This document shows positions 5,036 to 54,420 of a DNA stretch of 63,013 bases, piece after piece. How positions within the stretch are numbered: position 1 is the stretch's first letter; the number at the start of each line of letters is the position of its first letter. The stretch is taken from contig NZEE01000056.1 of the NCBI GenBank assembly GCA_002688965.1, positions 1,835 to 64,847 of the forward strand. The letters are read 5' to 3'. The stretch is from an archaeon (GTDB lineage Archaea > Aenigmatarchaeota > Aenigmatarchaeia > GW2011-AR5 > GCA-2688965). A program made the translations under genes and the position numbers. A model generated the notes under the pieces. The model worked only from the letters and a program-made list of their open reading frames with translations, was not told the DNA's origin and ran no database searches.

Positions 5036-6133
5036 CTAGTTTTCCTCAATTATATCCATGATTCGTTTACCTGTTGTACCATCACCTAATGGATTTATCC
5101 AATCACGTTTCTTTTGCAACATTTCTAATGAATGTTTCAAAATATTATCAGCATTAGTTCCAGCAATAACGTTTGCACCTACATCAACAGTTTCAGGCCT
5201 TTCTGTATTTTCACGCAAAGTTACACAAGGAACTTTCAATATACATCCTTCTTCTTGCAAACCACCAGAATCAGTAAGTATTAGTTTAGCTTTAGATTCC
5301 AGTTGCAAAAACTCCAAAAATCCCACTGGCTCAATCATTCGAATACCTTTAGGAACATCTAATGAAAATTGATTTATTTTTTTCTTTGTTCTAGGATGAA
5401 GCGAGTATATAGATTCAATACCAGTTTCTTGATAAAGTTTATTCAAACCATTTAATATTCCTTCTAACTTATGCTTGGTATCAACATTCTCTTGTCTATG
5501 AGCAGTAACTAAAAAATAGTCCCCATCAATTTTCAAATTATTAAAAACATCGACTTTCTTATTAGCAATCTCTAAGTTTTGCTGAACAGCATCAACAATA
5601 GTATTTCCAGTAACATGAATCTTACTAATATCAATTCCTTCTTTCAATGCATTATGTTTTGAATTTTCAGTAGGTGCAAACAAAAATGTAGACAAATGAT
5701 CACTCAATACTCGATTAACTTCTTCAGGCATTGATCTATCATAACTTCTTAACCCAGCTTCAATATGCCCAACTTTCATTCCAAGTTTAATTCCACATAA
5801 TGAACCAGATAAAACAGTAATAGTATCACCTTGAACTAAAACATGTTCTGGTTTCTCTTTAGACAAAACACGTTCTATCTTCAACATCATTCTACCAGTA
5901 TGCTCACCTTGCTGCAACGGAGACTTAGATGTAACACCTAATGAATGCAAAGCATGTGGTAATTCTAACTCTTCAAAAAACAGTTTACTCATGTTATATG
6001 AAAAGTGCTGTCCACTATCAACAATAAAATAATCTAAATCTCTTTTCTCACATTCACGAATTACAGGACTCATCTTTATAATCTCAGGTCTAGTTCCAGC
6101 CAAAATTGCAATCTTACCTTTATTCAAACCCAT
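5036..6133 (-). CDS. wecB: UDP-N-acetylglucosamine 2-epimerase (non-hydrolysing)
   Basis: 365 residues, the usual family length. AGTRPEIIKMSPVI at the N terminus, QGDTITVLSG, GHIEAGLRSYDRSMPEEVNR and TDSGGLQEEG are the signature segments of WecB/MnaA, which interconvert UDP-GlcNAc and UDP-ManNAc in the cytoplasm. GGTGTAATT precedes the ATG. Together with the dehydratase, acetyltransferase and flippase this supplies activated amino sugars for a surface glycan. Confidence in the family is high; the use of the product is inferred. Confidence 0.94.
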   Translation of the reverse strand: MGLNKGKIAILAGTRPEIIKMSPVIRECEKRDLDYFIVDSGQHFSYNMSKLFFEELELPHALHSLGVTSKSPLQQGEHTGRMMLKIERVLSKEKPEHVLVQGDTITVLSGSLCGIKLGMKVGHIEAGLRSYDRSMPEEVNRVLSDHLSTFLFAPTENSKHNALKEGIDISKIHVTGNTIVDAVQQNLEIANKKVDVFNNLKIDGDYFLVTAHRQENVDTKHKLEGILNGLNKLYQETGIESIYSLHPRTKKKINQFSLDVPKGIRMIEPVGFLEFLQLESKAKLILTDSGGLQEEGCILKVPCVTLRENTERPETVDVGANVIAGTNADNILKHSLEMLQKKRDWINPLGDGTTGKRIMDIIEEN

Positions 6134-6135
6134 AA

Positions 6136-7299
6136 TTACACCAGCAAATCAATAAACACATTTTGATTATTATTGAAAAATTTATCATACATATCCAAAG
6201 CCTGCAGAGCAAACATACTGCACCAAGAATTTACATGATTCATTTTATTTCCATCTTCAAATCCAAAATAAAATCCACCTTTATGACTTCCCTCTTCTAA
6301 ATGTTGCAAAGAAAGTAATCTATCTTTTAGTTTAGCCATTCTTTCAATTACATGATCATCAATCATACAACCATATTGTGTAACTAAAACACCTAAACGT
6401 AGCGTTTGTGCAAGCGTATCAACTCTTTCATTAATATTTGGTTTACTATCAACATACAAAGAAGGGACTCCACCTGTTTCCAGTTGCTGCATCAAAGTCC
6501 ATTCAACTGCTTTTGCAGCAGCTTGCATATACATTTTATTATGAGTTTTCACACCAACATAAATCAATCCTTCAGCAGTATAACTATGAGGATGAACATG
6601 TGTTCCACCGGTATCTCTAAAACTAACAAATCTTCCATCTTCTTCTTGCATTTTCAAAGCAGCATCACAAACTGCAACAGCACTATCAAGATATTTTTTA
6701 TCACCAGTAACTTCATGCAAGTCAATCATTCCCATTGCATTCTTACAATGATAACTTCCAGATTGAGAAGACCATTTCCCTAATGTATCATTCATCTTTC
6801 CAGTTTTTGCATCATAACTTGCAAAAAACATTCCATCAGGTCTCTGCATTGTTAATAAGAAATCAGCAATTTTCTTTGCATTATCAAGATAAGCTTCTAT
6901 TTCAGTAACTTTATACAAGTTAATCAATCCAAACAAAACCATTCCAATATCAAATGAATATAATATTTCACTATCAAAAGAATACATTCCAGCTTCATGC
7001 GTATCTTCTAAATAATCTCTAGTTTTTACACCACCAGACTTATGCATTGCAACATTAATCAACCAATCAGCTGCAATCTTAGCTCTATCTAACAATATTT
7101 CTTCCTTAGTTTGCTTATACAAATACAATAATGTAGTTATACCATAACCAGTTATTTCCGAATAAATGTAAGGATATTTCTTCTCATCTAAATTATACCA
7201 AGAATTAAATCCACCATTAGTTCTAGTATCTAATGATATATTCTGTATTCCAGAATTTACCAACCAATCTTTAGCCATTAAAAATGATTTATTTTCCAT
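6136..7299 (-). CDS. Alpha/alpha-toroid protein of the glycan cluster
   Basis: 387 residues built of repeated helix pairs with recurring GG.Y, AADWL and WCSMFALQALDMY elements, the pattern of (alpha/alpha)6 toroid proteins (six-hairpin glycosidase or terpene-cyclase-like folds). No signal peptide is visible, so it is probably cytoplasmic. It overlaps the acetyltransferase gene by 11 nt and sits directly before wecB, so it is translated with sugar-biosynthesis genes. It may act on a glycan or an isoprenoid-linked sugar. Catalytic residues are not recognisable to me. Confidence 0.65.
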   Translation of the reverse strand: MENKSFLMAKDWLVNSGIQNISLDTRTNGGFNSWYNLDEKKYPYIYSEITGYGITTLLYLYKQTKEEILLDRAKIAADWLINVAMHKSGGVKTRDYLEDTHEAGMYSFDSEILYSFDIGMVLFGLINLYKVTEIEAYLDNAKKIADFLLTMQRPDGMFFASYDAKTGKMNDTLGKWSSQSGSYHCKNAMGMIDLHEVTGDKKYLDSAVAVCDAALKMQEEDGRFVSFRDTGGTHVHPHSYTAEGLIYVGVKTHNKMYMQAAAKAVEWTLMQQLETGGVPSLYVDSKPNINERVDTLAQTLRLGVLVTQYGCMIDDHVIERMAKLKDRLLSLQHLEEGSHKGGFYFGFEDGNKMNHVNSWCSMFALQALDMYDKFFNNNQNVFIDLLV

Positions 7300-7840
7300 T
7301 AGATCTCACCAAGTCAATTTTTTTCTTACATTTCAAACATGTGTTACTATCATCTAATCTTTGACCACATTCACAAACATATCCAATAACTTTTGCAGGA
7401 TTACCAACCATCAGCGCATGTTCAGGAACATCTTTAGTAACAACTGAACCTGCACCAACCAAAGCATACTTTCCAATAATAACATCAGGCATTATCACAG
7501 TATTAGCTCCAATACTTGCACCTTTATGAACAGTCCATGAGATTCCTTCTAAATCTCTAATAACACCACTACGAGGATTCTTGTCATTTGCTAAACAAAC
7601 ATTAGGACCAATAAAAACATCGTCTTCAATTACAACTGGTCTGTAAATTGAAGATTTATTTTGTATAGAAACATTATTTCCTATCTCAACACCAGAGTCA
7701 ATATATACTCCATTAGCTATGTTACAACCATTTCCAATAACAACGTTATCACGGATTTGAGAAAAGTGCCAAATTTTAGTATCTTCACCAATTTTAGCAC
7801 TAGGATCTACTACCGCAGTATCTGAAATAAAGACTGACAT
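7289..7840 (-). CDS. Sugar N-acetyltransferase, left-handed beta-helix (WlbB/WbpD-like)
   Basis: 183 residues. Hexapeptide repeats (IGEDTKIWHFSQIRDNVVIGNGCNIANGVYI and onward) form a left-handed beta-helix. The ALVGAGSVVTKDVPEHALMVGNPAKVIGYV ending is typical of WlbB/WbpD acetyltransferases that acetylate UDP-3-amino-sugar uronates with acetyl-CoA. A small four-cysteine ribbon (CECGQRLDDSNTCLKC) closes the protein. The 3' end overlaps the downstream toroid gene. It fits with the NDP-sugar dehydratase gene just upstream. Confidence 0.88.
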   Translation of the reverse strand: MSVFISDTAVVDPSAKIGEDTKIWHFSQIRDNVVIGNGCNIANGVYIDSGVEIGNNVSIQNKSSIYRPVVIEDDVFIGPNVCLANDKNPRSGVIRDLEGISWTVHKGASIGANTVIMPDVIIGKYALVGAGSVVTKDVPEHALMVGNPAKVIGYVCECGQRLDDSNTCLKCKKKIDLVRSNGK

Positions 7841-7857
7841 ATTCTTTACCTACTGAC

Positions 7858-8841
7858 TTATTTCTGTTGTTTGACAAAGTTTATATTCTTTTCTAAACCC
7901 TCATCAATGCTGATTTTTGGCTCCCAACCAAACAATTCTTTGGCTTTTGAAGCATTGCAGCATAAACGATTAACTTCAGCTAAACGTTTATCAATATGAG
8001 TTATTTTAGAATCAGAACCAGTTATCTTAACAAGTTTCTCAGCAATATCATTTACAGAGACATCTACACCTGTTCCAAAGTTAATTGCTTTACCAACAGC
8101 ATCTGGATGAGCACCCATTGTCAAAAATGCTCTAATCATGTCATCAACATATGTAAAATCTCTTGTTTGCTCACCTTTTCCATAAATTGTCAAATCTTTT
8201 CCTTCTAATGCAAGTTCAATAAACTTAGGAATCACATCATATGTATGTCGAGGGCCATAAGTATTGAAAGGACGAATTATTGCAACAGGAACTTCGTATG
8301 TTGTAAAATATGAAAAGCAATATCTATCAGCTGCAGCTTTTGAAGCAGCATATGGAGATGTAGGATGTAAAACAGTTTCTTCATTTATATCAGTTTCACA
8401 AGAACCATATATTTCACTTGATGAAGTACATACAACTCTCTTAACTGAAGGTGTTTGCATTGTTGCATGCAACATGTTTATAGTTCCAATCAAATTAGTT
8501 TGTAAAACTTCAATAGGATGGTCAAAAGAATTTGGAACATATGCATTTGCAGCTAAATGGAATATAATTTCTGGTTTATTTTTTTTAACAAGTTCAATTG
8601 AATCAGTACTTCCAATATCTCCTGCTATAACTTCTTCTAACTTATCCTTAACATGAGACAAATTCTTCAACTCAATCTTAGATGTTCCGCAAACTGAAGT
8701 ACCTCTAACATAAATTGAAACTTTTGCACCTAATTCAAGCAAACGTTCAGTTAAATGAGAGCCCATAAAACCATCTGCTCCAGTAACTAGAACGCGTTTA
8801 CCTTTGTAAGTATCAGCAAAAAGCTGGTCTAAATCATCCAT
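7858..8841 (-). CDS. NDP-sugar 4,6-dehydratase (extended SDR, LegB-like)
   Basis: 327 residues. NAD-binding GADGFMGSHLTERL at residues ~20-33, SSSEIYG around residue 140, YAASKAAADRY with the catalytic YxxxK, and RPFNTYGPRH. The acidic residue in SSSE replaces the second Ser/Thr of plain epimerases and is typical of 4,6-dehydratases. The LHPTSPYAASK and RPFNTYGPR wording resembles LegB-type UDP-GlcNAc 4,6-dehydratases. It heads the dehydratase-acetyltransferase-toroid-WecB run. The exact sugar is inferred. Confidence 0.85.
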   Translation of the reverse strand: MDDLDQLFADTYKGKRVLVTGADGFMGSHLTERLLELGAKVSIYVRGTSVCGTSKIELKNLSHVKDKLEEVIAGDIGSTDSIELVKKNKPEIIFHLAANAYVPNSFDHPIEVLQTNLIGTINMLHATMQTPSVKRVVCTSSSEIYGSCETDINEETVLHPTSPYAASKAAADRYCFSYFTTYEVPVAIIRPFNTYGPRHTYDVIPKFIELALEGKDLTIYGKGEQTRDFTYVDDMIRAFLTMGAHPDAVGKAINFGTGVDVSVNDIAEKLVKITGSDSKITHIDKRLAEVNRLCCNASKAKELFGWEPKISIDEGLEKNINFVKQQK

Positions 8842-8873
8842 GTATAGAACAAGTTTCGTATATTTTAAAGTCT

Positions 8874-10502
8874 TTAAATTTCACATAATAATCCAGTAAC
8901 ATGTCCATTAACTTCAATAAATTCGCTAGTTCTACAGTTTTTAGCAAATTCTCTGAACAATGCCTCATCACGTAAAGTATGAACAGCAATATACTTCACA
9001 TTATTCTTCTCAACAAACTCCATATTCAGTTCAGGTCGCTTAGAAACCATTATTTTATCCTTAGGAGTTATCTGATACACTGTATCTTCCCATGCCCATA
9101 CCTCATCATATGGCCATCCTTTCTCTTCAACACCTTCAGCAAGCTCATGAACTGTATGTGTTCCAATACCAATCCATGAATTAGTGCCAACAATAGCAAA
9201 TAAGCTCATTGATATGAAACCAGCAACTAATATTAGAACAGATAGTTTTCTCAAGCTACCCTTAAAGAACAATAATCCTATACCTATTGACACTGCAAGC
9301 AAAACTACAGGAACAATAACCTCATAATAACCCATTAAGTCATTAACCCCAAAGAATGCAAGTACTGAAAAGATTATTACTGAACAAATTCCAAGATTTA
9401 TCAAGTCTCTTTCTCTAATTTCCTTGTAAACATCATAAATCAACTTACCAACTAAGATAAACACCGCTGGTAAGACCATAGTAAAGTATCTTTGGACATC
9501 ACCATGCACTGGTATCATAAATATTACAAGCAAAAACAATATCCACGTTGCAAGTAAGAGATAATTCTCATCTTTTTTAATAAAAATCAGTCCTAACAAC
9601 CCAAGTACAGCTAAGAACGGAGTTAATTGCCACATTATAGCTGATAATGAAAATGCTTTGTTTTGCAACGTAGTTGTTAAGCTTGCATTAGCAGTTCCGC
9701 CTGCAGAATTCAATAAAACATCAAATGGTCCATTAAACCATCCCATATCTCCATAAGCCATAGCAATTGCAAATATGAGTAATAACACCAATATTGCAGA
9801 AAAGACAAAATAACCTAGTTCTACAAAATGTTTTTTCTTAATTAACTTTCTATTCTTAGTTAAGAAGTTTCTTTTACTTCTATCAAAGTATATTGAGTAA
9901 ATTAATATTGGAACAATTATCAATACTCCTAATAATTTCGTAAATATACATAATCCAAAGAATAACATAGATATCAAAAGATATTGACGCGCTGCAAAGG
10001 CACTTCTATAGATATAACTCTTTTTCTTATACAAAACAAAGAAGAATATAGCTGCTAATGAAAATAATGGTAAGAAACTTCCATCAACATCAATTAATTG
10101 AGAACCATAAATATGATATCTCGATATTGCTAACAACAATGCAGCAATAATTCCTACATTTCTATTAAACAACGTCTTTCCAAGATAAAATGTAAGCAAT
10201 ATTGTAAGTATACCTGCAGCTATAGGAAACAATCTAACTAAAAACCCATCATTTGCAAGCGCTACAAAACCTGCGTAAGCTAATTTATCAAAAGGAGGGT
10301 GCGAATAATGAAGTATATTTAATCCAGCTGCATCTTGCCACAAAATAGGCTGTCCTGTCTCAAGCATATACTTGCCAGTTGTTATTCTACCTAACTCATC
10401 TGAAAAAAAATCAGGATGTTCATACAATCCAGAACCAAACATTCTCAGGAATATAGCAACTACAATAATGATCAATAACAAATGTTCTTTCTTTAATTTC
10501 AT
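8874..10502 (-). CDS. GT-C glycosyltransferase (PMT/ArnT-like), multispanning
   Basis: 542 residues with an N-terminal helix followed by an extracytoplasmic acidic loop (HPDFFSDELGRI) and the HYSHPPFDKLAY segment. This is the arrangement of GT39-like protein or lipid glycosyltransferases, in which the acidic pair binds the polyprenyl-phosphate sugar. About ten membrane helices follow, then a C-terminal ~100-residue soluble domain (TNSWIGIGTHTVHELAEG...). It probably transfers a sugar from dolichyl phosphate on the outer face. It is divergent from the next GT-C gene. Confidence 0.8.
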   Translation of the reverse strand: MKLKKEHLLLIIIVVAIFLRMFGSGLYEHPDFFSDELGRITTGKYMLETGQPILWQDAAGLNILHYSHPPFDKLAYAGFVALANDGFLVRLFPIAAGILTILLTFYLGKTLFNRNVGIIAALLLAISRYHIYGSQLIDVDGSFLPLFSLAAIFFFVLYKKKSYIYRSAFAARQYLLISMLFFGLCIFTKLLGVLIIVPILIYSIYFDRSKRNFLTKNRKLIKKKHFVELGYFVFSAILVLLLIFAIAMAYGDMGWFNGPFDVLLNSAGGTANASLTTTLQNKAFSLSAIMWQLTPFLAVLGLLGLIFIKKDENYLLLATWILFLLVIFMIPVHGDVQRYFTMVLPAVFILVGKLIYDVYKEIRERDLINLGICSVIIFSVLAFFGVNDLMGYYEVIVPVVLLAVSIGIGLLFFKGSLRKLSVLILVAGFISMSLFAIVGTNSWIGIGTHTVHELAEGVEEKGWPYDEVWAWEDTVYQITPKDKIMVSKRPELNMEFVEKNNVKYIAVHTLRDEALFREFAKNCRTSEFIEVNGHVTGLLCEI

Positions 10503-21968: not shown

Positions 21969-22145
21969 ATGTCAGACATGTTAATTGTTCGTAGTAAAGT
22001 TAAGGCACTTGTAAAAAAGAAAAAAATGGCTTTTGGTGCAGACGCAGCAACTGAATTAAGCGCTACAGTTGAAAAACTGATTGATAGAGCAGCTGAAAGA
22101 GCAAAAGCTAACCGAAGAAACACAGTTAAGGGCCGAGACATATAA
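21969..22145 (+). CDS. Short histone-fold protein (bacterial Bd0055-like type)
   Basis: 58 codons from ATG at 21969 to TAA, behind a clear GGAGG at ~21957-21961. The TATA box TTTTATATA is at 21873-21881, giving a leader of roughly 65 nt. The product starts MSDMLIVRSKVKALVKKKK and ends RAKANRRNTVKGRDI. It has histone helices 1 and 2 and the RxTV..xD/E-L/I ending but stops before a full helix 3. This short form matches the single-domain histones known from Bdellovibrio and also seen in many archaea. It is a second histone class besides the canonical one at 48.5-48.8 kb. It is divergent from polB. Confidence 0.8.
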   Translation: MSDMLIVRSKVKALVKKKKMAFGADAATELSATVEKLIDRAAERAKANRRNTVKGRDI

Positions 22146-22475
22146 ATTTCTTTATTTAACTAAATTTGTTAAATTTTGCATTTTTCTTTTATTTTTCCTT
22201 CATTTTTATTCATTATTCATACATATGAACTATTCTTTCTTTGTTCATATTTGTTCACAACTTCATATTTTGTGTTCATATCAACATATTTTGTGAAATG
22301 AAGATAAAAAATGTGAAATGAAATAATTATGATATGAAATAGGAATTTCACGCCATTTCACAATATCATATGAATTCACAACCCCCCTATTTCCAGTGGA
22401 GAATCTAACCCCCTTGTTGCATTTGGACAGATTTCATATGGAACCAAGAGTTAATTCAAATGAACTTCATCTTAA
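22146..22475. promoter_or_regulatory. Intergenic region with TTCAC-type sites and an ORB-like element
   Basis: 330 bp without a gene, between the short histone and the polB stop. It has repeated TTCA/TGAA pentamers (TTCA starting at 22244, 22254, 22262, 22275, 22347, 22357, 22375; TGAA at 22294, 22314, 22335), many about one or two helical turns apart. TTCACGCCA followed by TTCACA recurs in the array at 41.47 kb. At 22389-22403 there is ATTTCCAGTGGAGAA, an origin-recognition-box core, flanked on both sides by runs of C (22382-22387 and ~22408-22413). I see it as a probable initiator-protein binding region. Confidence 0.55.
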
Positions 22476-25208
22476 TTATTTTTTCTGAGAAGCAAAACCA
22501 ACACTACCACCACATTCACACTTACCACTTAATGGCGGTCTATTATAACTCTTTGAACACTTTTCACAAGAAAATCCTTTAATTTCATTTACAGACACAG
22601 TTTTCTCTTTTTTTTCAGCAGACCCATGATTTACCTTAATATCATGCTTCATAACTCGCTGCTTTCCACTCATTATGTCAGCAATTGAAGCTTGCCTACC
22701 AAATCCTAGTAATTCATTCTTCTCAATACCCATTGAAGCAAGTATTCTTTCAACAGGAGGAAGTAATTGTCTATCAATATAGTAATCAGAGTCAATTTCA
22801 AGCCCATTTTCCTTAATATATTCCACACTCTCAGCTCTTTTTGATAACATCTCATTACCACGAGTAATAACATATCCAATTCTGTCTCCAACAACCACTG
22901 GTTCATCTGGTTTTCTCTGATTTAGTTTTTTTGCAAGCTCAATATGGGGTTGAACACCTTTGTAAGCACTTAATGCACGAGTCACACCTTTAACAACAAC
23001 TAATTTCTCAATATCAACCTTGTTTTCTTTAACATCTATCACAATTTTCTTAATAAAATCAACAGATTTCTGTATATCACCTTGTTTCAAAATTATTTCT
23101 ATTATTTCATTCAAAGCACCAGAAACTAGAGTACACCAATCTCTTCTAACAGTCTCAATTCCTTTCATTTCTATTTTATCTTTCCATTTCATCTTTCCAC
23201 TTGAATAATCAGGAACAAATGACCATCCAGCATACCTTTTTTTAGTTAAAATCAAAAAAGTTCGGTAAATCTTCTCAAATTCAAGATCTAAAACACCAGG
23301 AAGATTATCAGTCACATATTTACTGATTTCATCACCCATTTTCTTAGCTTTATCCAAATCCTCTTCATCTGTAGCAACAAAAACAGAATCAGTATCACCA
23401 TAACTCAAAGATAATCCATACTTATCTTTAATCAATTTCTCAGTTTTTATCAAATTACTTCTACCATGAGCAGTAACTCCCCCAGCAACAGCCATTACAT
23501 ACAAACGAGCTTTCAAATATCCTGTATATCCATAAAAAGAATTAAGTAAAATCTTCAAAGCACTCTGACGAGCATCTAAAATCGCTTTTTCATCATCAGT
23601 TTTAGCTTCCCTCATCATTTTCTTAACATTAGCACGAGCTTCTAACAATCCTTCAAGTATTCTTGGTATAATTCCCTTGTGAACCTTAGAATCAACAAAA
23701 ACATCATCCAAAGGCGATGTATGCTTCTCATCGTCTTTAAGCTCAGGAGATTCTTCAGTAATCAAAGTGTCTGGCGATAGATTATACGTAATAATAAGCG
23801 AAGGATAAAGACTCTTAAAATCCAGTATCAAAGTACATCCTTTAGTATGTAAACCCTTATCAGGCTCAAGAACAGTAGCACCTTTCAACCCCTTTTTCTT
23901 TCTTTCCTGATTTCTTTTATTGATGATAGCATCATTTGGTTTAGTAGGAAGAACATACCCAGTATCTCTAAATTCATGTAAAATTCGTATTTCTATACGA
24001 GCGCTCTGCCCACCTAAACTATCTTGCAATAAAACTCCAGAAACCTTACTCAATTCAAAGAATTTATCCAATAATCGCTTCTTAAACAATAAATCAAGTG
24101 CAAGTTCAGAGTCCTTTGCACAATATCTTATCAATTTCTCTGTTCCTTTTACACTCTTCCAATGATCTTTGATATCCTTATGTTTTACATCAAGTTTATC
24201 ATCACCAAGCATTATTTTAGCAACCGTTCCAAGATCATATCTTGGTAATCTAACATAAACATCTCTTCTAAGTAATTGAAATGGATCAACAACAACTCTA
24301 CCAGATATAACACTCTCATTATTTGGTCCATAAGAACGCACATAACTAAAATCAGGAGTTTTACCAAGAGAACAAGGTAATTTATGTATTTTCAATCTTT
24401 CAAGAATAAAAGGTATATCAAAACCATTGATATTATAACCAGTTAGTATATCTGGATCATATTCCATAAGTATTCTCTGAAATTCTTCAAGCATTTCTTT
24501 TTCATCAGAAAAACATCTCAAACTAATATCTTTATCATCAAATTTAGTATGTTTTGCACAAACCACATGTTTCTTACTACCCCTAAATTCATGAGAAAAC
24601 ACACAAGATATCATTATTATTGGGTCAAATTTTCCATCAGCCATTCTATTTGATTCAGTTGATATACATTCCAAATCAAAAGACATATATTTCAAAGGAG
24701 CATTTTCTATTTTATCTAAAATTTTTATTTCACTCTCCTTTGCATCTGTCTCATATGTGTCGCAATTAGTAGTTTGAGTATAAATTTTATTTACATTCAT
24801 AGAAACCCAATCCATACCATGAATATTATTATCAACTAAATAACGATATTTGAAAAGAACATCACTTTCATAAATTTCATCAATAAATTCTTCTTGGTCA
24901 TATTTTTCACGTAACCCCCTTACATCCTTTGGAGAATAAGCAATAACTTTTACTATTTTAGTTTTCTTATTATGATAACCTATAGCAAGGAATTTATCAA
25001 CTTCTTCCAAATCTTTTATTTGAGCGTCGTCGCCCATAACAGAAAATATTTTTTTAATGTCCCCTTTTACATAAAAATAAGGATCAAATCCAGTAACAAG
25101 AACACATGTAGCATTACCGTCTTCTTTTCTACCAAATAAACGGATAACTGGTTTATTCCCATTCATAAAATAATCTGCATTAATTAATTGGAACTCTATG
25201 TTACTCAT
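22476..25208 (-). CDS. polB: Family-B DNA polymerase with DP2-like C-terminal zinc finger
   Basis: 910 residues from the ATG at 25208 (GGTG upstream). Exonuclease motifs are intact: Exo I FDLE (D178, E180), Exo II GYNINGFDI (257-265), Exo III YCAKD (362-366). Polymerase motifs are intact: A DFKSLYPS (463-470), B KILLNSFYG (552-560), C YGDTDS (603-608), then KKRYAGW. Unlike ordinary archaeal PolB, the last ~30 residues form a zinc finger: C881, C884, C897, C899 with an NRPPLSGKC segment between. That segment resembles the C-terminal zinc finger of PolD large subunit DP2, and the eukaryotic CysB motif has the same job of docking the B-subunit. It lies directly downstream of the DP1-like gene (28-nt gap) and of cdc6. 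Confidence 0.96.
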   Translation of the reverse strand: MSNIEFQLINADYFMNGNKPVIRLFGRKEDGNATCVLVTGFDPYFYVKGDIKKIFSVMGDDAQIKDLEEVDKFLAIGYHNKKTKIVKVIAYSPKDVRGLREKYDQEEFIDEIYESDVLFKYRYLVDNNIHGMDWVSMNVNKIYTQTTNCDTYETDAKESEIKILDKIENAPLKYMSFDLECISTESNRMADGKFDPIIMISCVFSHEFRGSKKHVVCAKHTKFDDKDISLRCFSDEKEMLEEFQRILMEYDPDILTGYNINGFDIPFILERLKIHKLPCSLGKTPDFSYVRSYGPNNESVISGRVVVDPFQLLRRDVYVRLPRYDLGTVAKIMLGDDKLDVKHKDIKDHWKSVKGTEKLIRYCAKDSELALDLLFKKRLLDKFFELSKVSGVLLQDSLGGQSARIEIRILHEFRDTGYVLPTKPNDAIINKRNQERKKKGLKGATVLEPDKGLHTKGCTLILDFKSLYPSLIITYNLSPDTLITEESPELKDDEKHTSPLDDVFVDSKVHKGIIPRILEGLLEARANVKKMMREAKTDDEKAILDARQSALKILLNSFYGYTGYLKARLYVMAVAGGVTAHGRSNLIKTEKLIKDKYGLSLSYGDTDSVFVATDEEDLDKAKKMGDEISKYVTDNLPGVLDLEFEKIYRTFLILTKKRYAGWSFVPDYSSGKMKWKDKIEMKGIETVRRDWCTLVSGALNEIIEIILKQGDIQKSVDFIKKIVIDVKENKVDIEKLVVVKGVTRALSAYKGVQPHIELAKKLNQRKPDEPVVVGDRIGYVITRGNEMLSKRAESVEYIKENGLEIDSDYYIDRQLLPPVERILASMGIEKNELLGFGRQASIADIMSGKQRVMKHDIKVNHGSAEKKEKTVSVNEIKGFSCEKCSKSYNRPPLSGKCECGGSVGFASQKK

Positions 25209-25236
25209 AAGAACACCATTGTAATTTATCAGAAAA

Positions 25237-26373
25237 TCATTTAAGGTTGTCAGGATAAATTTGCCCATATTCTCTATTATTAAGATTGATAAATGATGGT
25301 ACAAATTCTGTTAAAAGAGAGCCAGAATTAAACATTGTGATACTCTTATAATTCTCAATAAAGGGTTTACCTGTATCAGCATAGAAAATTATGTCTGGTA
25401 TATTAGAAATAATAAATTCTTTAAAAGGAACGCCCCTTTCCCCATTTTTATTCTCATAATCAATATATCTCTTTTTCAAAACTGTTAAATTAAATTTATC
25501 AATACAAAGCACATTTACCCCATTTATTTTTATCAAACACGGACTACTAAGCCCAGTAACATTTTCAGGTGTATATTTACGAGCAACTGATGGTGTACCA
25601 TCATCAGAAGATGAAATAAATATTTGTTTATTTGGACATTTTTCAGAAATTATTTTCTCAAGTAAAGGAATATCACCTATTTTTCCACCAACAAAAATAT
25701 AATCAATATTTGATTTAGACAACCAAGAAAATACTTTTTCCAAATCTTTTGTCGGAGCTTCATCTAATTTTAAATCAGATATATAACACATTCTCCCATA
25801 TCCTTTCAAAGGCTCACGTAAAGGAACATCTGGATAAATTACTTTTTCACCAAAAATAATTTTATCTTTTATAACCCCACCAATACCAACAACATCATCT
25901 ATATTTAATGCGTCTGCTTCATCTAAACTATTTTTATTAAATTTAATTTTAACACTTCCAGTAGCGTCTTCCATTTCTAAAATAATTCTATCTTCTTCTT
26001 TTTCTTTACCACGAACAATTCCTATGATATTAAAATCACCAAACGTAACAGAACTAGATAAATTCGAAATAGAAACAAACTCTTTAGTTTTAAACCGAGA
26101 AACAATTATATTTTTTATCATATCATATTTCTTATTATACATCTCAGTTAATTCACTTACCGAAATATTATCAGGAACCGATTCAATATTATTAATTATC
26201 TCTATTTTTTTACCTTTTTTGATATTTTCTGGCTCAATAACAAATCTAGTTTTATCATAAAAAACAGATTCAGGTTCATTAATTGAAAATTTATCATCAA
26301 CTAGTTTTTGTAAAGATAAAGGAGAAAGTAAATGCCCCTGTCCTATAAAAAATTCTACAATTTCTTTTTCCAT
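25237..26373 (-). CDS. DP1-like DNA polymerase B-subunit with inactivated phosphoesterase domain
   Basis: 378 residues. The OB fold spans about 110-180 (FNIIGIVRGKEKEEDRIILEMEDATGSVKI). DVPLREPL at 182-189 leads into a phosphoesterase-like domain (196-365). Every metal-ligand motif of active DP1 is altered: SDIH is SDLK (199-202), GD is GK (230-231), GNHD is replaced by SDDG (256-259), the YHG strand end is IDKF (291-294), and GHVH is replaced by TGKP (334-337). NSGS (349-352) and the overall order remain. The nuclease is therefore probably dead, as in eukaryotic polymerase B-subunits. It sits between cdc6 and polB where Pyrococcus has DP1 before DP2. Confidence 0.85.
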   Translation of the reverse strand: MEKEIVEFFIGQGHLLSPLSLQKLVDDKFSINEPESVFYDKTRFVIEPENIKKGKKIEIINNIESVPDNISVSELTEMYNKKYDMIKNIIVSRFKTKEFVSISNLSSSVTFGDFNIIGIVRGKEKEEDRIILEMEDATGSVKIKFNKNSLDEADALNIDDVVGIGGVIKDKIIFGEKVIYPDVPLREPLKGYGRMCYISDLKLDEAPTKDLEKVFSWLSKSNIDYIFVGGKIGDIPLLEKIISEKCPNKQIFISSSDDGTPSVARKYTPENVTGLSSPCLIKINGVNVLCIDKFNLTVLKKRYIDYENKNGERGVPFKEFIISNIPDIIFYADTGKPFIENYKSITMFNSGSLLTEFVPSFINLNNREYGQIYPDNLK

Positions 26374-26388
26374 TTTACCACACCCAAA

Positions 26389-27639
26389 TTAGGAAAACTG
26401 TTCTTTCAAGAGATCATTAACTTCAGTAAGAATTTTCCCTGAAATAGCAAGTGTAATTTTTCTACTACGACCATATCTTCCAGTAGAAACAACTTTTGCT
26501 GTTATTATACCAAGCATATCAAGCTCACTTATCAAATCACTAACTCTTCGCTGAGTAAGTTCTTTATATCCAGTGTCTCTACAAATTCTCCTATACTTAT
26601 CATAAACATCACCAGTTGATACACCAACCATCTCGTGCTTACTTTTTTTAATTAAATTAATTATTCCAGCCAAAACAATTTGAGATTGTCTTGGTTGAGC
26701 ACGAATAGTTTCTATTATCCTATCAGAATCAATTTTCTTCTCAGCATTATCAACGTGTTCTTCTATTATTATATCAGCACCACTTCTCTCCGCAATTTCA
26801 CCAGAGACTCTTAATAAATTAAGTGCTCTTCGAGCATCACCATGCTCTTGTGCAGCTAAAGCAGCGCACTTACCAACAACAGCGTCAACAACAGATTCTT
26901 TGTTAAATGCAACACCAACACGCTCTTTCAAAATATCGCGGAGTTGTATTGCATCATATGGTTTAAATAATATTTCTTCTTCACCTAAAGATGACTTAAC
27001 ACGAGCATCTAAACTATCAGAAAACGATAAATCATTTGTTATTCCTATTACACTTACAGTTGAATTTTTCAATTCATTACCAATTCTTGTTAAATTATAT
27101 AAAAATTCATCACCAACTTTCTTAACTAGAACATCTATTTCATCTAGAGCAATAACAATAATTTGTTTTTTCTCATCAATCTTATCAAAGAACTTTCTAT
27201 ATATCACATCAGTTGGTAATCCAGTATCAGGAACATCAACACCAAATTCTGATAACAAACGAGCAAATAATCTATATTCAGTATCAGCTACTCTCTTCAT
27301 TTTACAATTCAAATATATTGTCTTTATTGATAATTTTTTTCCCTTCTGTTTCTTAATTATAGAAGGGTCAATTGAAGCCGCAACAAGTTGTTCTAAAACA
27401 TATCTAGTACACATTGACTTTCCTGTTCCAGTTTTACCATAAACAAAAATATTATTAGGTTGAAACCCCTTCAAAGCAGGTATTAGAGAAGCAGTAAGAT
27501 CCTTTATTTGTTTATCACGATGAATTATCTTATTAGGAATAAAATTTATTGATAAAACATCCTTATTTTTGAAAACTGTTTTCATTTCAAATTTAGAAAA
27601 TATATTACTTCCATCCACTTCTGACCACCAATGAACCAT
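26389..27639 (-). CDS. cdc6: Orc1/Cdc6 replication initiator
   Basis: 416 residues. AAA+ core: Walker A VYGKTGTGKS near residue 65, Walker B VIALDEIDVLV near residue 160, sensor region VIGITNDLSF, and the Orc/Cdc6 AALAAQEHGDARRALNLLRVSGEIAE helix set. A C-terminal winged helix (residues ~330-410) reads ORB DNA. It is the first gene of the cdc6-DP1-polB run, and its start faces a 200-bp region full of ORB-like sequences, the typical archaeal initiator-beside-origin arrangement. Confidence 0.95.
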   Translation of the reverse strand: MVHWWSEVDGSNIFSKFEMKTVFKNKDVLSINFIPNKIIHRDKQIKDLTASLIPALKGFQPNNIFVYGKTGTGKSMCTRYVLEQLVAASIDPSIIKKQKGKKLSIKTIYLNCKMKRVADTEYRLFARLLSEFGVDVPDTGLPTDVIYRKFFDKIDEKKQIIVIALDEIDVLVKKVGDEFLYNLTRIGNELKNSTVSVIGITNDLSFSDSLDARVKSSLGEEEILFKPYDAIQLRDILKERVGVAFNKESVVDAVVGKCAALAAQEHGDARRALNLLRVSGEIAERSGADIIIEEHVDNAEKKIDSDRIIETIRAQPRQSQIVLAGIINLIKKSKHEMVGVSTGDVYDKYRRICRDTGYKELTQRRVSDLISELDMLGIITAKVVSTGRYGRSRKITLAISGKILTEVNDLLKEQFS

Positions 27640-27841
27640 TATTTCCCCTGGAACTATAAATACTTATCTCCAGTGGAAACTATGCTTACCCAAACATATG
27701 TTCCAGAACACAACACCCACCCCATGTTTGCAACTGGAACTACTATATAATCATATATATTGTATAACATTGTTATAAGAAGTATAGGTAACACTTTTCC
27801 ACTTGAAATTAATTAAAAACGTTCCAAAAGAAATCAGAGGG
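27640..27841. other. Probable replication origin with ORB-like repeats
   Basis: Intergenic 202 bp next to cdc6. ORB-like cores around GTTCCAGTGGAAAC: TCTCCAGTGGAAAC at 27667-27680 (forward); TTTCCCCTGGAAC at 27642-27654 and TTTGCAACTGGAAC at 27727-27740 (reverse orientation); TGTTCCAGAACA at 27699-27710; TTTTCCACTTGAAAT at 27795-27809; GTTCCAAAAG at 27821-27830. Between 27740 and 27790 is an almost pure A/T stretch that could serve as the unwinding element. The cdc6 promoter (ACTATAAATAC at ~27653-27663) is embedded among the boxes. Confidence 0.75.
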
Positions 27842-31550: not shown

Positions 31551-32801
31551 ATGAAACATAAATTATTAACAATACCAACAATCTTAATCATTTTAGTAAC
31601 TATTTTTATAAGCGGTTGTACAGTTGCTCAGGCAATGATGTTAGATGATAGTGAGGCAACATCTGAAGGTGTAAAAGCAGTTGTCAATTCAAACAATCAG
31701 TTTACATCAGATTTGTATTCTAAACTTTTAGAAACTGAGGAAGGAAATATATTTTTTTCACCTTACAGTATAACTTCAGCATTCGCAATGACATACGAAG
31801 GTGCTCGTGGCACAACAGCTGAAGAAATAAAACAAGTATTTTATTTTCCTGATGAAGAAATTGTATTAAGATCATCCTATGCAAGATTATTCAATTTAAT
31901 AAACAAGCCGGATAAATCATACCAACTTAGTACAGCAAACGCATTATGGGCACAAGAAGATTATCCATTCTTAGAAGAATATCTCAGTATAATAGAAAAT
32001 TATTATGGAGGAGAAACTACAAATCTAGATATTGAAGGTGATATAGAAGGATCACGACAAACAATTAATAAATGGGTTGAAGATCAAACATATAATAAAA
32101 TTAAAGATCTGATACCAAAAGGCATTTTAAAACCTACTACACGTTTAGTTCTAACAAATGCAATTTATTTCAAAGGAACATGGTTGAATCAGTTTGATCC
32201 TAAAAATACCCGAGAAATGAATTTTTATGTTAGTGACACAGAAACAGTTACAGCAAATATGATGTATTTGGTCCCTAAAGAAAATAAATTCAACTATGCA
32301 GAAACAGATAATCTACAATTACTAGAACTTCCATATGAGGGAGAAGAAATATCAATGATGGTAATTCTTCCAAAAACCGGTAAGATGCCTTTAGTTGAAT
32401 CTAATTTTACATCGGATAATTTAGAATTATGGAAAAACAGTATGACAGATCAAAAAGTTACCATATATCTACCTAAATTTAAATTTAAAACAAACTATTT
32501 TATGGTACCAACATTCAAAGATATGGGTATGGTATCAGCATTTAGAGCACCGCCTGCTGATTTTTCAGGATTAGATGGGACAAAAACTCTTAAAATACAA
32601 GAAATAATTCATCAAGCTTTTGTTGAAGTTAATGAAGAAGGTACAGAAGCAGCGGCAGCAACCGCGGTTGTCATAGGAAAAGAATCTGCTAGTATAAATC
32701 CAATTTTCAAAGCAGACAGACCATTCATATTCATAATACAGGAAAAATCAACTGGAGCAATATTATTTTTAGGAAAGGTTATGGATCCAACAGTTGAATA
32801 A
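31551..32801 (+). CDS. Serpin (protease inhibitor), lipoprotein form
   Basis: 416 residues. A signal peptide with lipobox (TIFISGCTVA) anchors it outside the cell. The serpin fold is complete: NIFFSPYSITSAFAMTYEGARGTTAEEI, LVLTNAIYFKGTWLNQF, QAFVEVNEEGTEAAAATAVV hinge and RPFIFIIQEKSTGAILFLGKVMDP. The short-Ala hinge means the inhibitory insertion is preserved. By standard numbering from the EEGT hinge the scissile bond falls near GKE/SAS, so P1 is Glu or Lys. TTTATATA at 31522-31529 is ~26 nt before the ATG (leaderless). Confidence 0.95.
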   Translation: MKHKLLTIPTILIILVTIFISGCTVAQAMMLDDSEATSEGVKAVVNSNNQFTSDLYSKLLETEEGNIFFSPYSITSAFAMTYEGARGTTAEEIKQVFYFPDEEIVLRSSYARLFNLINKPDKSYQLSTANALWAQEDYPFLEEYLSIIENYYGGETTNLDIEGDIEGSRQTINKWVEDQTYNKIKDLIPKGILKPTTRLVLTNAIYFKGTWLNQFDPKNTREMNFYVSDTETVTANMMYLVPKENKFNYAETDNLQLLELPYEGEEISMMVILPKTGKMPLVESNFTSDNLELWKNSMTDQKVTIYLPKFKFKTNYFMVPTFKDMGMVSAFRAPPADFSGLDGTKTLKIQEIIHQAFVEVNEEGTEAAAATAVVIGKESASINPIFKADRPFIFIIQEKSTGAILFLGKVMDPTVE

Positions 32802-52512: not shown

Positions 52513-54420
52513 TTAAACCGCTTCTACAATCTTTGCAAAAGAATCAGGATCTAACGCAGCGCCACCTACTAAACCACCATCAACATCTATCTGTGCTGTA
52601 AGCTCAGCAGCATTCTCAGGTTTCATACTACCGCCATATAGGATACGTACGCCACTAGCAATCTCAGCTCCGTATTTGTCTTTGATAAGAGAACGTATGT
52701 ACGCGTGCACGCGTTGAGCTTGCTCAGGTGTAGCTGTTTGACCAGTACCAATAGCCCATATAGGTTCATAAGCAATTATCAATTTCTTCATATCATCTGC
52801 TGTTATATCAACAAGACATCGTTCAATTTGATTTTCTATTACATCTTTTGTTTTATCATCCTCTCTTTGTGTGAGAGTTTCACCAACACACACAACAGGA
52901 GTTAAATCATTCTTAAGAGCAGCTTTAATTTTTTGATTAACTGTTTTATTTAGTTCATTAAAATATTGTCTTCGTTCAGAATGGCCAAGTATAACATGAG
53001 TACATCCAATATCTTTCAACATTTGCCCAGATATTTCTCCAGTAAATGCTCCAGAATCTTCCCAATGCATATTTTCAGCACCAACCATTACAGAAGAATC
53101 CTTAAACATTTCTATCAAACTATGTAAGCATGTGTAAGGCCCACAAACAAGAACATCAGCATTACTATTTAGATTCTTAATATTTTTATTGAACTTATCT
53201 GCAAACTTAATAGATTCATCAATAGTCTTATTCATCTTCCAATTTCCCGCAATCATTATTCTTCTCTTAGCAGAGGTTTCATCTGTTTCAAATACACCTT
53301 CTAATGCAGCAATGCCAGGTAGATTTTTACCAGATATAAATTCCATGCTTGCCCCTCCGCCTGTACTTACATGAGTATAAACATCAACAAGTCCCATTTT
53401 TTTAATTGCAGCTAAAGTTTCTCCACCACCAATTACAGTAGTAGCTGTGCTATCTGATATCATTTTAGCAATAAACTCTGTACCTTTTGCAAAATTAGTA
53501 TCTTCAGAAATACCTAAAGGACCATTCCAAAATATTAATTTAGCATCTTTCAATATTTCTTTAAAATTTTCAAGAGTTTCAGGTCCTATATCACACCCAG
53601 CTTTTTCATCATTATAAACAGAATCAACCGGTAAAATAATTTTTGTGTTACTAGCTTCAGCTTTTTCTAATATATTTTTAGCAATTCCCAATGACTCATT
53701 ATCAACAATAGAATTCTGAACATCTTCTTCTTTAGCTTTCAAAAAAGTATAAGCCATTGCGCCACCAATTAAAATATAATCTGCAACACCAATTAAATTT
53801 TCAATCACAGGAATCTTATCAGTTATTTTTTTACCACCAAGAATTACAACAAACGGATGTTCTTTTGATTTTACTAATTTATTCATATATTCAATTTCTT
53901 TTTCTAAAAGTATTCCAGCATAAGAAGGAATATGTTTCATTATTTGATGAACACTTGCTTGTTTCCTATGTGAAACTGAGAAAGCATCATTAACATATAA
54001 TTCTCCAAACGTAGCAAGAGATTTTGCAAAAGTATTATTATTTTCTATTTCAAACTTATCAAACCTAACATTTTCTAAAACTAATATATCAGCATTGTCC
54101 ATTAATTTTATTTTTTCTTCAGCTTCTGATAAATTAGAAAACATTACATTTTTGTCAAGTAATTCAGAAAGTTTTTCACTTATGATTTTATTTGATAATT
54201 TAACTTTATCATTTTCATTTTCAGGGCGACCAATATGATTTAGTAAAATTACTTTTGCGCCATTATCAGTACAATGATTTATAGAATCAAGAGCAGCTTT
54301 TACACGTGTGTCATCAATAATTTTTCCATTTTCAATTGGAACATCCATCCCAACACGTATAATGATACACTTACCATCCAAATCTTCTTTATTCAAATCT
54401 TTAAGCAGTTTCATAACCAC
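52513..54420 (-). CDS. pgk-tpi: Phosphoglycerate kinase - triosephosphate isomerase fusion
   Basis: About 635 residues. Residues ~1-385 are a bacterial-type PGK: HIGRP, LENVRFDKFE, NDAFSVSHRKQASV, ILGGKKITDKIPVI, FWNGPLGISED, STGGGASMEFISGKNLPGIAAL. The first substrate loop reads RVGMDVP instead of RVDFNVP. Residues ~390-635 are a bacterial-type TIM: MIAGNWKMN (Lys), ILGHSERRQYF (His), IAYEPIWAIGTGQTATPEQ (Glu), ILYGGSMKPENA. PGK-TIM fusions are known from Thermotoga. Archaeal PGK and short archaeal TIM are different, so acquisition from bacteria is likely. Adjacent to class I gap. Confidence 0.95.
   Translation of the reverse strand: MVMKLLKDLNKEDLDGKCIIIRVGMDVPIENGKIIDDTRVKAALDSINHCTDNGAKVILLNHIGRPENENDKVKLSNKIISEKLSELLDKNVMFSNLSEAEEKIKLMDNADILVLENVRFDKFEIENNNTFAKSLATFGELYVNDAFSVSHRKQASVHQIMKHIPSYAGILLEKEIEYMNKLVKSKEHPFVVILGGKKITDKIPVIENLIGVADYILIGGAMAYTFLKAKEEDVQNSIVDNESLGIAKNILEKAEASNTKIILPVDSVYNDEKAGCDIGPETLENFKEILKDAKLIFWNGPLGISEDTNFAKGTEFIAKMISDSTATTVIGGGETLAAIKKMGLVDVYTHVSTGGGASMEFISGKNLPGIAALEGVFETDETSAKRRIMIAGNWKMNKTIDESIKFADKFNKNIKNLNSNADVLVCGPYTCLHSLIEMFKDSSVMVGAENMHWEDSGAFTGEISGQMLKDIGCTHVILGHSERRQYFNELNKTVNQKIKAALKNDLTPVVCVGETLTQREDDKTKDVIENQIERCLVDITADDMKKLIIAYEPIWAIGTGQTATPEQAQRVHAYIRSLIKDKYGAEIASGVRILYGGSMKPENAAELTAQIDVDGGLVGGAALDPDSFAKIVEAV

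What the first reader, a model, noticed from the sequence alone, without database searches (positions are those of the whole stretch)
22476..27639. Eukaryote-like polymerase: cdc6 - DP1 - PolB with a DP2-type zinc finger in place of DP2
Seen: an intact family-B polymerase ends in C881-x2-C884...NRPPLSGKC-x-C899, which resembles the C-terminal zinc finger of PolD subunit DP2, the part that docks DP1. It lies 28 nt behind a DP1-like B-subunit gene, itself behind cdc6. Known: Pyrococcus has cdc6-DP1-DP2 at its origin; eukaryotic PolB enzymes bind their B-subunit through a C-terminal CysB zinc finger and are thought to be chimeras of PolB and PolD. Inferred: here DP2 was replaced in place by PolB that took over the DP2 finger, giving a PolB-DP1 holoenzyme, a living form of the proposed chimera.
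Basis: partly seen in the sequence, partly recalled or inferred. Interest (0 to 1): 0.95.

Follow-up and report, generated by a model that had tools for sequence, protein, structure and literature searches.

The report
Eukaryote-style DNA polymerase pair in archaea
An archaeon (by its nearest relatives likely an aenigmarchaeon) encodes, in one gene row behind its replication initiator, a DNA polymerase that ends in the zinc finger of an unrelated polymerase and a partner subunit that lacks the nuclease residues and that the finger is predicted to grip, an arrangement like the one thought to have given rise to our own replicative polymerases.

Summary
On the minus strand, cdc6, a DP1 homologue and an intact family-B polymerase follow each other with gaps of 15 and 28 nt. 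The PolB tail (C881, C884, C897, C899) resembles specifically the Zn-III finger of PolD subunit DP2. Such enzymes are in print (group B6-aenigma1, Kazlauskas et al. 2020, PMC7544198), so this is a new member of a known kind.

Added here: (1) 118 of 118 complete B6 PolBs keep the finger; 0 of 61 ordinary PolBs have it. (2) DP2 was found in 10 of 156 phylum genomes. (3) DP1 lies in the same stretch as PolB in 109 of 125. (4) All 8 DP1 nuclease residues are kept in 7 of 7 DP1s of the DP2-bearing group, in 0 of 105 others. (5) The top covarying pair of 190,736 is PolB R890 (equivalent to docking residue R1132 of P. abyssi DP2) with DP1 D159; in about nine of 13 independent comparisons both differ together. 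(6) Origin-box-like sites are about 16-fold enriched in front of cdc6.

The parts
26389..27639 (-). cdc6/orc1 replication initiator, 416 aa, first gene of the row
   Evidence: TIGR02928 orc1/cdc6 family, E 9.5e-123, above its cut-off; Cdc6_C and Cdc6_lid
25237..26373 (-). DP1/B-subunit homologue, 378 aa; OB domain plus phosphoesterase fold with catalytic residues lost
22476..25208 (-). Family-B DNA polymerase with 3'-5' exonuclease domain, 910 aa, with a C-terminal zinc finger
   Evidence: model pLDDT 86
22491..22577 (-). C-terminal DP2 Zn-III-type finger, PolB residues 878-906, Cys 881, 884, 897, 899
   Evidence: 118 of 118 complete B6 PolBs keep it; codon coordinates
22539..22544 (-). Codons of N889 and R890, equivalent to P. 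abyssi DP2 R1131 and R1132, the docking loop
   Evidence: Alignment, codons; R890 is the best covarying partner of DP1 D159
25897..25899 (-). Codon of DP1 D159 (OB-domain loop), predicted partner of PolB R890
   Evidence: equivalent to P. abyssi DP1 D314 by the alignment
27640..27841 (.). cdc6 5' region with three ORB-like sites (27641, 27668, 27795) and an AT-rich palindrome (27763): predicted origin elements

Best explanation
This is a cdc6-DP1-PolB gene row of a likely aenigmarchaeon in which an intact family-B DNA polymerase carries at its C-terminus a finger like Zn-III of PolD subunit DP2 and is predicted to dock with it onto the product of the neighbouring DP1 gene, which lacks the nuclease residues, giving a likely PolB-DP1 holoenzyme that would stand in for PolD. 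Shown by sequence: the gene order, the intact exonuclease and polymerase motifs, the finger and its specific likeness to DP2 Zn-III, and the loss of the DP1 catalytic residues. Shown across relatives: every complete PolB of this group that was looked at has the finger, DP2 is rarely found, DP1 and PolB genes are mostly neighbours, and PolB R890 and DP1 D159 change together. Inferred: R890 (with the 889 position) sits in the acidic groove of DP1, as R1131/R1132 of DP2 do in P. abyssi. Inferred: proofreading moved from DP1 to the PolB exonuclease, which freed the DP1 site to decay. Inferred: the row lies at a replication origin and the pair is the main replicase.
For: Finger: 24 of 26 whole PolBs hit the DP2 model PRK04023; in P. 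abyssi DP2 only the third finger scores; 19 of 19 tails hit three DP2 models; 118 of 118 complete B6 PolBs; 0 of 61 ordinary PolBs. DP2: 10 of 156 genomes by two models, the same ten; 0 of 22 genomes behind named loci. In one search, 67 further genomes ring below the cut-off, all but two (G037, G073) at the Zn-III positions of DP2. Neighbourhood: DP1 in the same stretch in 109 of 125, directly 5' on the same strand in 79. DP1 decay: 7 of 7 in the DP2 group keep 8 of 8 residues, 0 of 105 others do, 78 of 105 keep 0 or 1. Covariation: top of 190,736 pairs; R and D 72, R without D 2, D without R 4, neither 22 (71, 2, 4, 22 without one duplicate row); 13 independent pairs, on average 9.4 same way and 0.0 other way, median p 0.004. 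D159 ranks 1 of 159 DP1 columns against R890; R890 ranks 1 and the 889 column 2 of 592 PolB columns against D159. Fold: DP1, then eukaryotic B-subunits. Origin: 69 ORB-like sites in 71 cdc6 5' regions against 1-4 in 10 shuffles.
Against: No complex was modelled or measured; no multimer tool was available. The window itself keeps only one of the two docking arginines (N889, R890). Finger columns as a whole are not enriched among high-MI pairs (2 of top 50, 34 of top 1000, 3.4% expected), so the case rests on one residue pair found by scanning and then tested on the same data. The helical bundle that also binds DP1 in DP2 is not seen in the PolB model: residues 862-874 have pLDDT under 50 and no helix is predicted after residue 847. 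Other zinc proteins score too, more weakly (SNAI1 E 3e-5 over 21 residues, VapC6 E 0.003 over the finger). Many phylum genomes also hold a second, ordinary-length PolB match, so which enzyme replicates the chromosome is open. Ten of the 139 DP2-less genomes with a PolB match have only weaker matches (E 1e-65 to 1e-156), so a B6 PolB is not confirmed there. DP2 absence is from MAGs of untold completeness.
Confidence: 0.82

Rival explanations
1. The fingered PolB and DP1 do form a complex, but it serves repair or one strand only; the main replicase is the second, fingerless PolB found in many of these genomes.
For:: many genomes have a second PolB match in a frame of about 820 residues; ordinary PolBs, three of them from Aenigmatarchaeota bins, lack the finger (0 of 61).
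Against: The fingered PolB lies with cdc6 and DP1, and the cdc6 5' regions carry origin-box-like sites. Whether the second PolB has such a link was not tested.
Confidence: 0.2
2. The finger binds DNA or another replisome protein and has nothing to do with DP1; the two genes are neighbours only because both belong to the origin cluster.
For: Other Zn-III residues of P. abyssi (R1122, K1125, K1129, K1145) contact DNA (PMC7101311, passages), and K1125 is kept here as K883; short zinc fingers are common.
Against: R890-D159 covariation, reciprocal best among 159 and 592 columns; the loop is that of DP2 known to bind DP1 (PMC6355029, section 9; PMC4187176, passages).
Confidence: 0.1
3. DP1 here is a decaying relic of PolD without function, kept by chance beside cdc6.
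For: Catalytic residues are gone in most; some DP1 relatives are down to 314-323 aa (P0145-P0147).
Against: 135 of 156 genomes have a match; E135, D136, T138, P181, R302 and Y342 are kept in at least 94% of 105 sequences while catalytic columns are kept in at most 32%.
Confidence: 0.05

Closest known systems
B6-aenigma1 PolBs with inactive DP1 (Kazlauskas et al. 2020, PMC7544198; sections 19-21 and passages read)
   Same: Family-B polymerase with one DP2-like C-terminal zinc motif, inactive DP1-like subunit, DP2 absent in most Aenigmarchaeota; the authors already propose that it replaced DP2.
   Different: The main text holds none of the words operon, neighbo-, adjacent, and the sections read name no docking residue. 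Supplements were not readable.
PolD (DP1-DP2), P. abyssi
   Different: PolB stands beside DP1 where PolD has its DP2 catalytic subunit; DP1 nuclease residues lost; of the DNA-contacting basic residues R1122 and K1129 are not kept in the window finger, K1125 is (alignment).
Eukaryotic Pol alpha, delta, epsilon, zeta with B-subunits
   Different: One zinc motif instead of CysA plus CysB; a helix bundle is not predicted; eukaryotic CysB likeness is weak (zf-DPOE in 7 of 19 tails, best E 0.021).
B6-aenigma2 (two-motif) PolBs
   Same: L016, which has this architecture, joins the fingered PolBs on one branch; its finger reads RRPPLSGKC.
   Different: L016 has a CysA-like and a CysB-like motif and more sequence behind them; no DP1 match was found in its bin.

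Membership tests
B6-aenigma1 PolB (Kazlauskas 2020) | Intact family-B exonuclease and polymerase domains | tested here: met
B6-aenigma1 PolB (Kazlauskas 2020) | One C-terminal metal-binding motif most like that of DP2 | tested here: met
   the last 62 residues hold only these four cysteines; metal binding itself not tested
B6-aenigma1 PolB (Kazlauskas 2020) | Branches with Aenigmarchaeota B6 PolBs | tested here: met
   43-row branch of fingered PolBs including L016, SH-aLRT 100; window inside with P0002-P0005 at 100. P0005 is named Candidatus Aenigmatarchaeota
B6-aenigma1 PolB (Kazlauskas 2020) | B6 is sister to the eukaryotic Delta-like clade | not tested
   No eukaryotic rows were put in the tree
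B6-aenigma1 PolB (Kazlauskas 2020) | Co-occurs with a DP1 homologue lacking nuclease residues | tested here: met
   Window DP1 keeps 1 of 8 residues
B6-aenigma1 PolB (Kazlauskas 2020) | DP2 absent from the genome | not testable with these tools
   Window's genome not held; no DP2 found in 146 of 156 phylum genomes
PolD | DP2 catalytic subunit with the DP1 | tested here: inconclusive
   No DP2 in the gene row; PolB stands next to DP1. The rest of the genome could not be searched
PolD | DP1 with the full Mre11-type active site | tested here: not met
Eukaryotic replicative PolB catalytic subunit | Two C-terminal metal motifs, CysA and CysB | tested here: not met
   One motif only
Eukaryotic-type PolB holoenzyme | Physical complex of PolB tail with the B-subunit | tested here: inconclusive
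   Covariation predicts it; no complex modelled or measured

The most novel reading that the evidence does not exclude
Nearly a whole archaeal phylum copies its chromosome with a eukaryote-style PolB plus B-subunit holoenzyme, encoded with the initiator at the origin and held together by an Arg-Asp contact inherited from PolD; once the polymerase brought its own exonuclease, the DP1 nuclease decayed several times in parallel, repeating in living archaea the steps proposed for the birth of eukaryotic replicases.
Probability: 0.65. Interest if true: 0.8.

Novelty: new member of a known kind. Interest (0 to 1): 0.66.

Why it matters
Eukaryotic replicative polymerases are thought to be chimeras of a family-B core and the DP1/finger module of PolD. 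These archaea carry such a chimera today. The paired change of R890 and D159 names one contact to test, and relatives with intact, half-lost and fully lost DP1 sites form a natural series for asking when and why the B-subunit nuclease died.

Tried and rejected
Single-sequence scan of genome contigs found nothing; the alignment scan worked. The idea that DP2 was replaced at its own locus was tested on the phylum's DP2-bearing group and not supported. GC skew shows no clear origin switch in the window. A general enrichment of finger columns among covarying pairs was looked for and not found. The idea that the finger is just any zinc ribbon is disfavoured: after three DP2 rows (E up to 8e-9) the next PDB rows are C2H2 fingers (E 3e-5 and weaker) and VapC6 (E 0.003); NCBIfam PRK12496 also matches 9 of 19 tails, best E 2e-5, behind the DP2 models. 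The PolB fold search covers residues 4-836 only, so it says nothing on the finger. My first count of fingers in ordinary PolBs and first PolB tree took the largest frame of each locus, which was not the PolB in 15 of 61 loci; both were redone with the PolB frames, with the same outcome, and only one search is cited for them. Literature: eight searches (only open-licence PMC papers) listed no paper that I could see to describe the cdc6-DP1-PolB gene row in Aenigmarchaeota or the R890-D159 pair; of the listed papers five were opened, and supplements and subscription papers were not searched.

Limits of counts. Synteny stretches (126) were picked by hand from the match tables, out of 150 genomes with a PolB match; one held no PolB (G097), and 16 of the other 125 had no DP1 in the stretch, many at contig ends. 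'Same stretch' means up to about 6.5 kb apart. DP1 motif columns are hard to align in the most decayed sequences. DP1s under 240 aa were left out. The covariation set (100 pairs: 94 genomes, the window, five metagenome pairs) leaves out PolBs over 1040 aa (inteins) and weak matches, and holds one duplicate (G092 and P0007). The DP1 tree used 88 of 141 rows; the PolB tree used 35 of 104 phylum PolBs. Both have SH-aLRT support only. A few of the 61 ordinary PolBs are broken or split frames (for example L059, L060), so their tails may not be the true ends. The DP2 group is G147-G157; DP2 was found in 10 of these 11 (not in G152), and 7 of the 11 gave a DP1. The 71 genomes are those with at least 400 bases held in front of a cdc6 match of 300 bits or more.
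Full report
The gene row. On the minus strand the window carries cdc6 (27639-26389), a DP1 homologue (26373-25237) and a family-B polymerase (25208-22476), with gaps of 15 and 28 nt. In front of cdc6, on the same strand, lie an HMG-CoA-synthase-, a thiolase- and a DUF35-like gene (names by eye); behind PolB, on the other strand, is a 58-codon frame that resembles an archaeal histone.

The finger. In the whole window protein residues 878-905 hit DP2 models. A profile of 19 tails against the whole PDB finds DP2 chains at E 1e-9 to 8e-9, and in P. abyssi DP2 only the third finger scores. The alignment sets C881 and C884 on the first two Zn-III cysteines, C897 and C899 at the second pair, and N889 and R890 on R1131 and R1132. 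In P. abyssi these two arginines lie in an acidic groove of DP1 between its OB and phosphoesterase domains (PMC6355029, section 9), and a synthetic peptide of this finger binds DP1 in P. horikoshii (PMC4187176, passages). The finger is in 118 of 118 C-terminally complete B6 PolBs of 125 genomes (7 incomplete ones set aside) and in 0 of 61 ordinary PolBs.

DP2. PF03833 finds DP2 in 10 of 156 genomes of the phylum; TIGR00354 gives the same ten over its cut-off (3 of 14 control genomes ring). A further 67 genomes match TIGR00354 below its cut-off, all but two (G037, G073) at the Zn-III positions, mostly in frames of PolB length. The DP2 group shows no B6 PolB: its best matches to the B6 profile are E 6e-27 to 6e-112, against 0 in 107 of the 139 other genomes with a match. 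The window's own genome is not held, but the genomes nearest to it in the PolB tree (G076, G079, G086, G093, G096) are among those without DP2.

Neighbourhood. Of 126 stretches, 125 hold the PolB; DP1 is in the same stretch in 109. It is directly 5' on the same strand in 79 (64 within 100 nt), on the opposite strand in 29, elsewhere in 1; cdc6 is there too in 83 of 109. In the DP2 group none of 7 DP1 stretches has a cdc6 or B6-PolB match.

Docking. In 100 PolB-DP1 pairs the top of 190,736 APC-corrected mutual-information values is PolB 890 with DP1 159. Arg goes with Asp in 72, Arg without Asp in 2, Asp without Arg in 4, neither in 22 (71, 2, 4 and 22 after dropping one duplicate row). On a tree of the polymerase core (finger left out) 13 independent pairs differ in R890; D159 goes the same way in 9.4 on average, the other way in 0.0 and does not differ in 3.6 (median p 0.004). 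Scanned both ways, D159 is first of 159 DP1 columns and R890 first of 592 PolB columns, with column 889, the R1131 place, second. The pair was found by scanning, so the p value is post hoc; but R1132 is in print as a docking residue. Finger columns as a group are not enriched.

Origin. A recalled ORB consensus (two mismatches allowed) occurs 6 times in the window (1.48 expected, 1 of 100 shuffles as high), all six in or beside the gene row (22391-27807). In 71 relatives it occurs 69 times in the cdc6 5' regions (1.16 per kb) against 57 elsewhere (0.073 per kb); 43 of 71 have at least one. Ten dinucleotide shuffles give 1-4 and 20 scrambled patterns 0-5. That PolB-DP1 lies at an origin is inferred.

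Place in the literature. Kazlauskas et al. 2020 (PMC7544198; sections 19, 20, 21 and passages) describe B6-aenigma1 PolBs with one DP2-like motif, inactive DP1 and DP2 loss, and propose the replacement. I saw the gene row across the phylum, the origin-box link and the R890-D159 pair in none of the listings of eight searches nor in the parts read of five papers; the inactivation of DP1 is in print, its stepwise spread is counted here.

Noticed in passing
L016 (bin labelled Candidatus Odinarchaeota, 10-kb contig), 5941-8949: A B6-like PolB with two zinc motifs (CysA-like and CysB-like) and DP2-like C-terminal sequence, the eukaryote-like two-motif form; no DP2 and no DP1 match in the bin. May be misbinned.
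   Followed up: partly
window 27763-27777: AT-rich palindrome TATAACATTGTTATA in front of cdc6; several of its 9-mers recur in 25-27 of 71 cdc6 5' regions against 0-1 in a neighbouring stretch.
   Followed up: partly
window 52513-54420 (-): One 635-aa frame fuses phosphoglycerate kinase and triosephosphate isomerase.
   Followed up: no
window 21969-22145 (+): 58-codon frame resembling an archaeal histone (by eye; no Pfam match at E 1e-5), next to the end of PolB.
   Followed up: no
P0023, P0044, P0051, P0052, P0080, P0082, P0087 and others: Several B6 PolBs are 1298-1405 aa and carry an intein domain (PF14890, some also PF14528).
   Followed up: no
P0145-P0147: Short DP1 relatives (314-323 aa) in which parts of the phosphoesterase domain are gone while the OB part stays.
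   Followed up: no
window 31551-32801 (+): Frame that looks like a secreted serpin (by eye, not searched).
   Followed up: no
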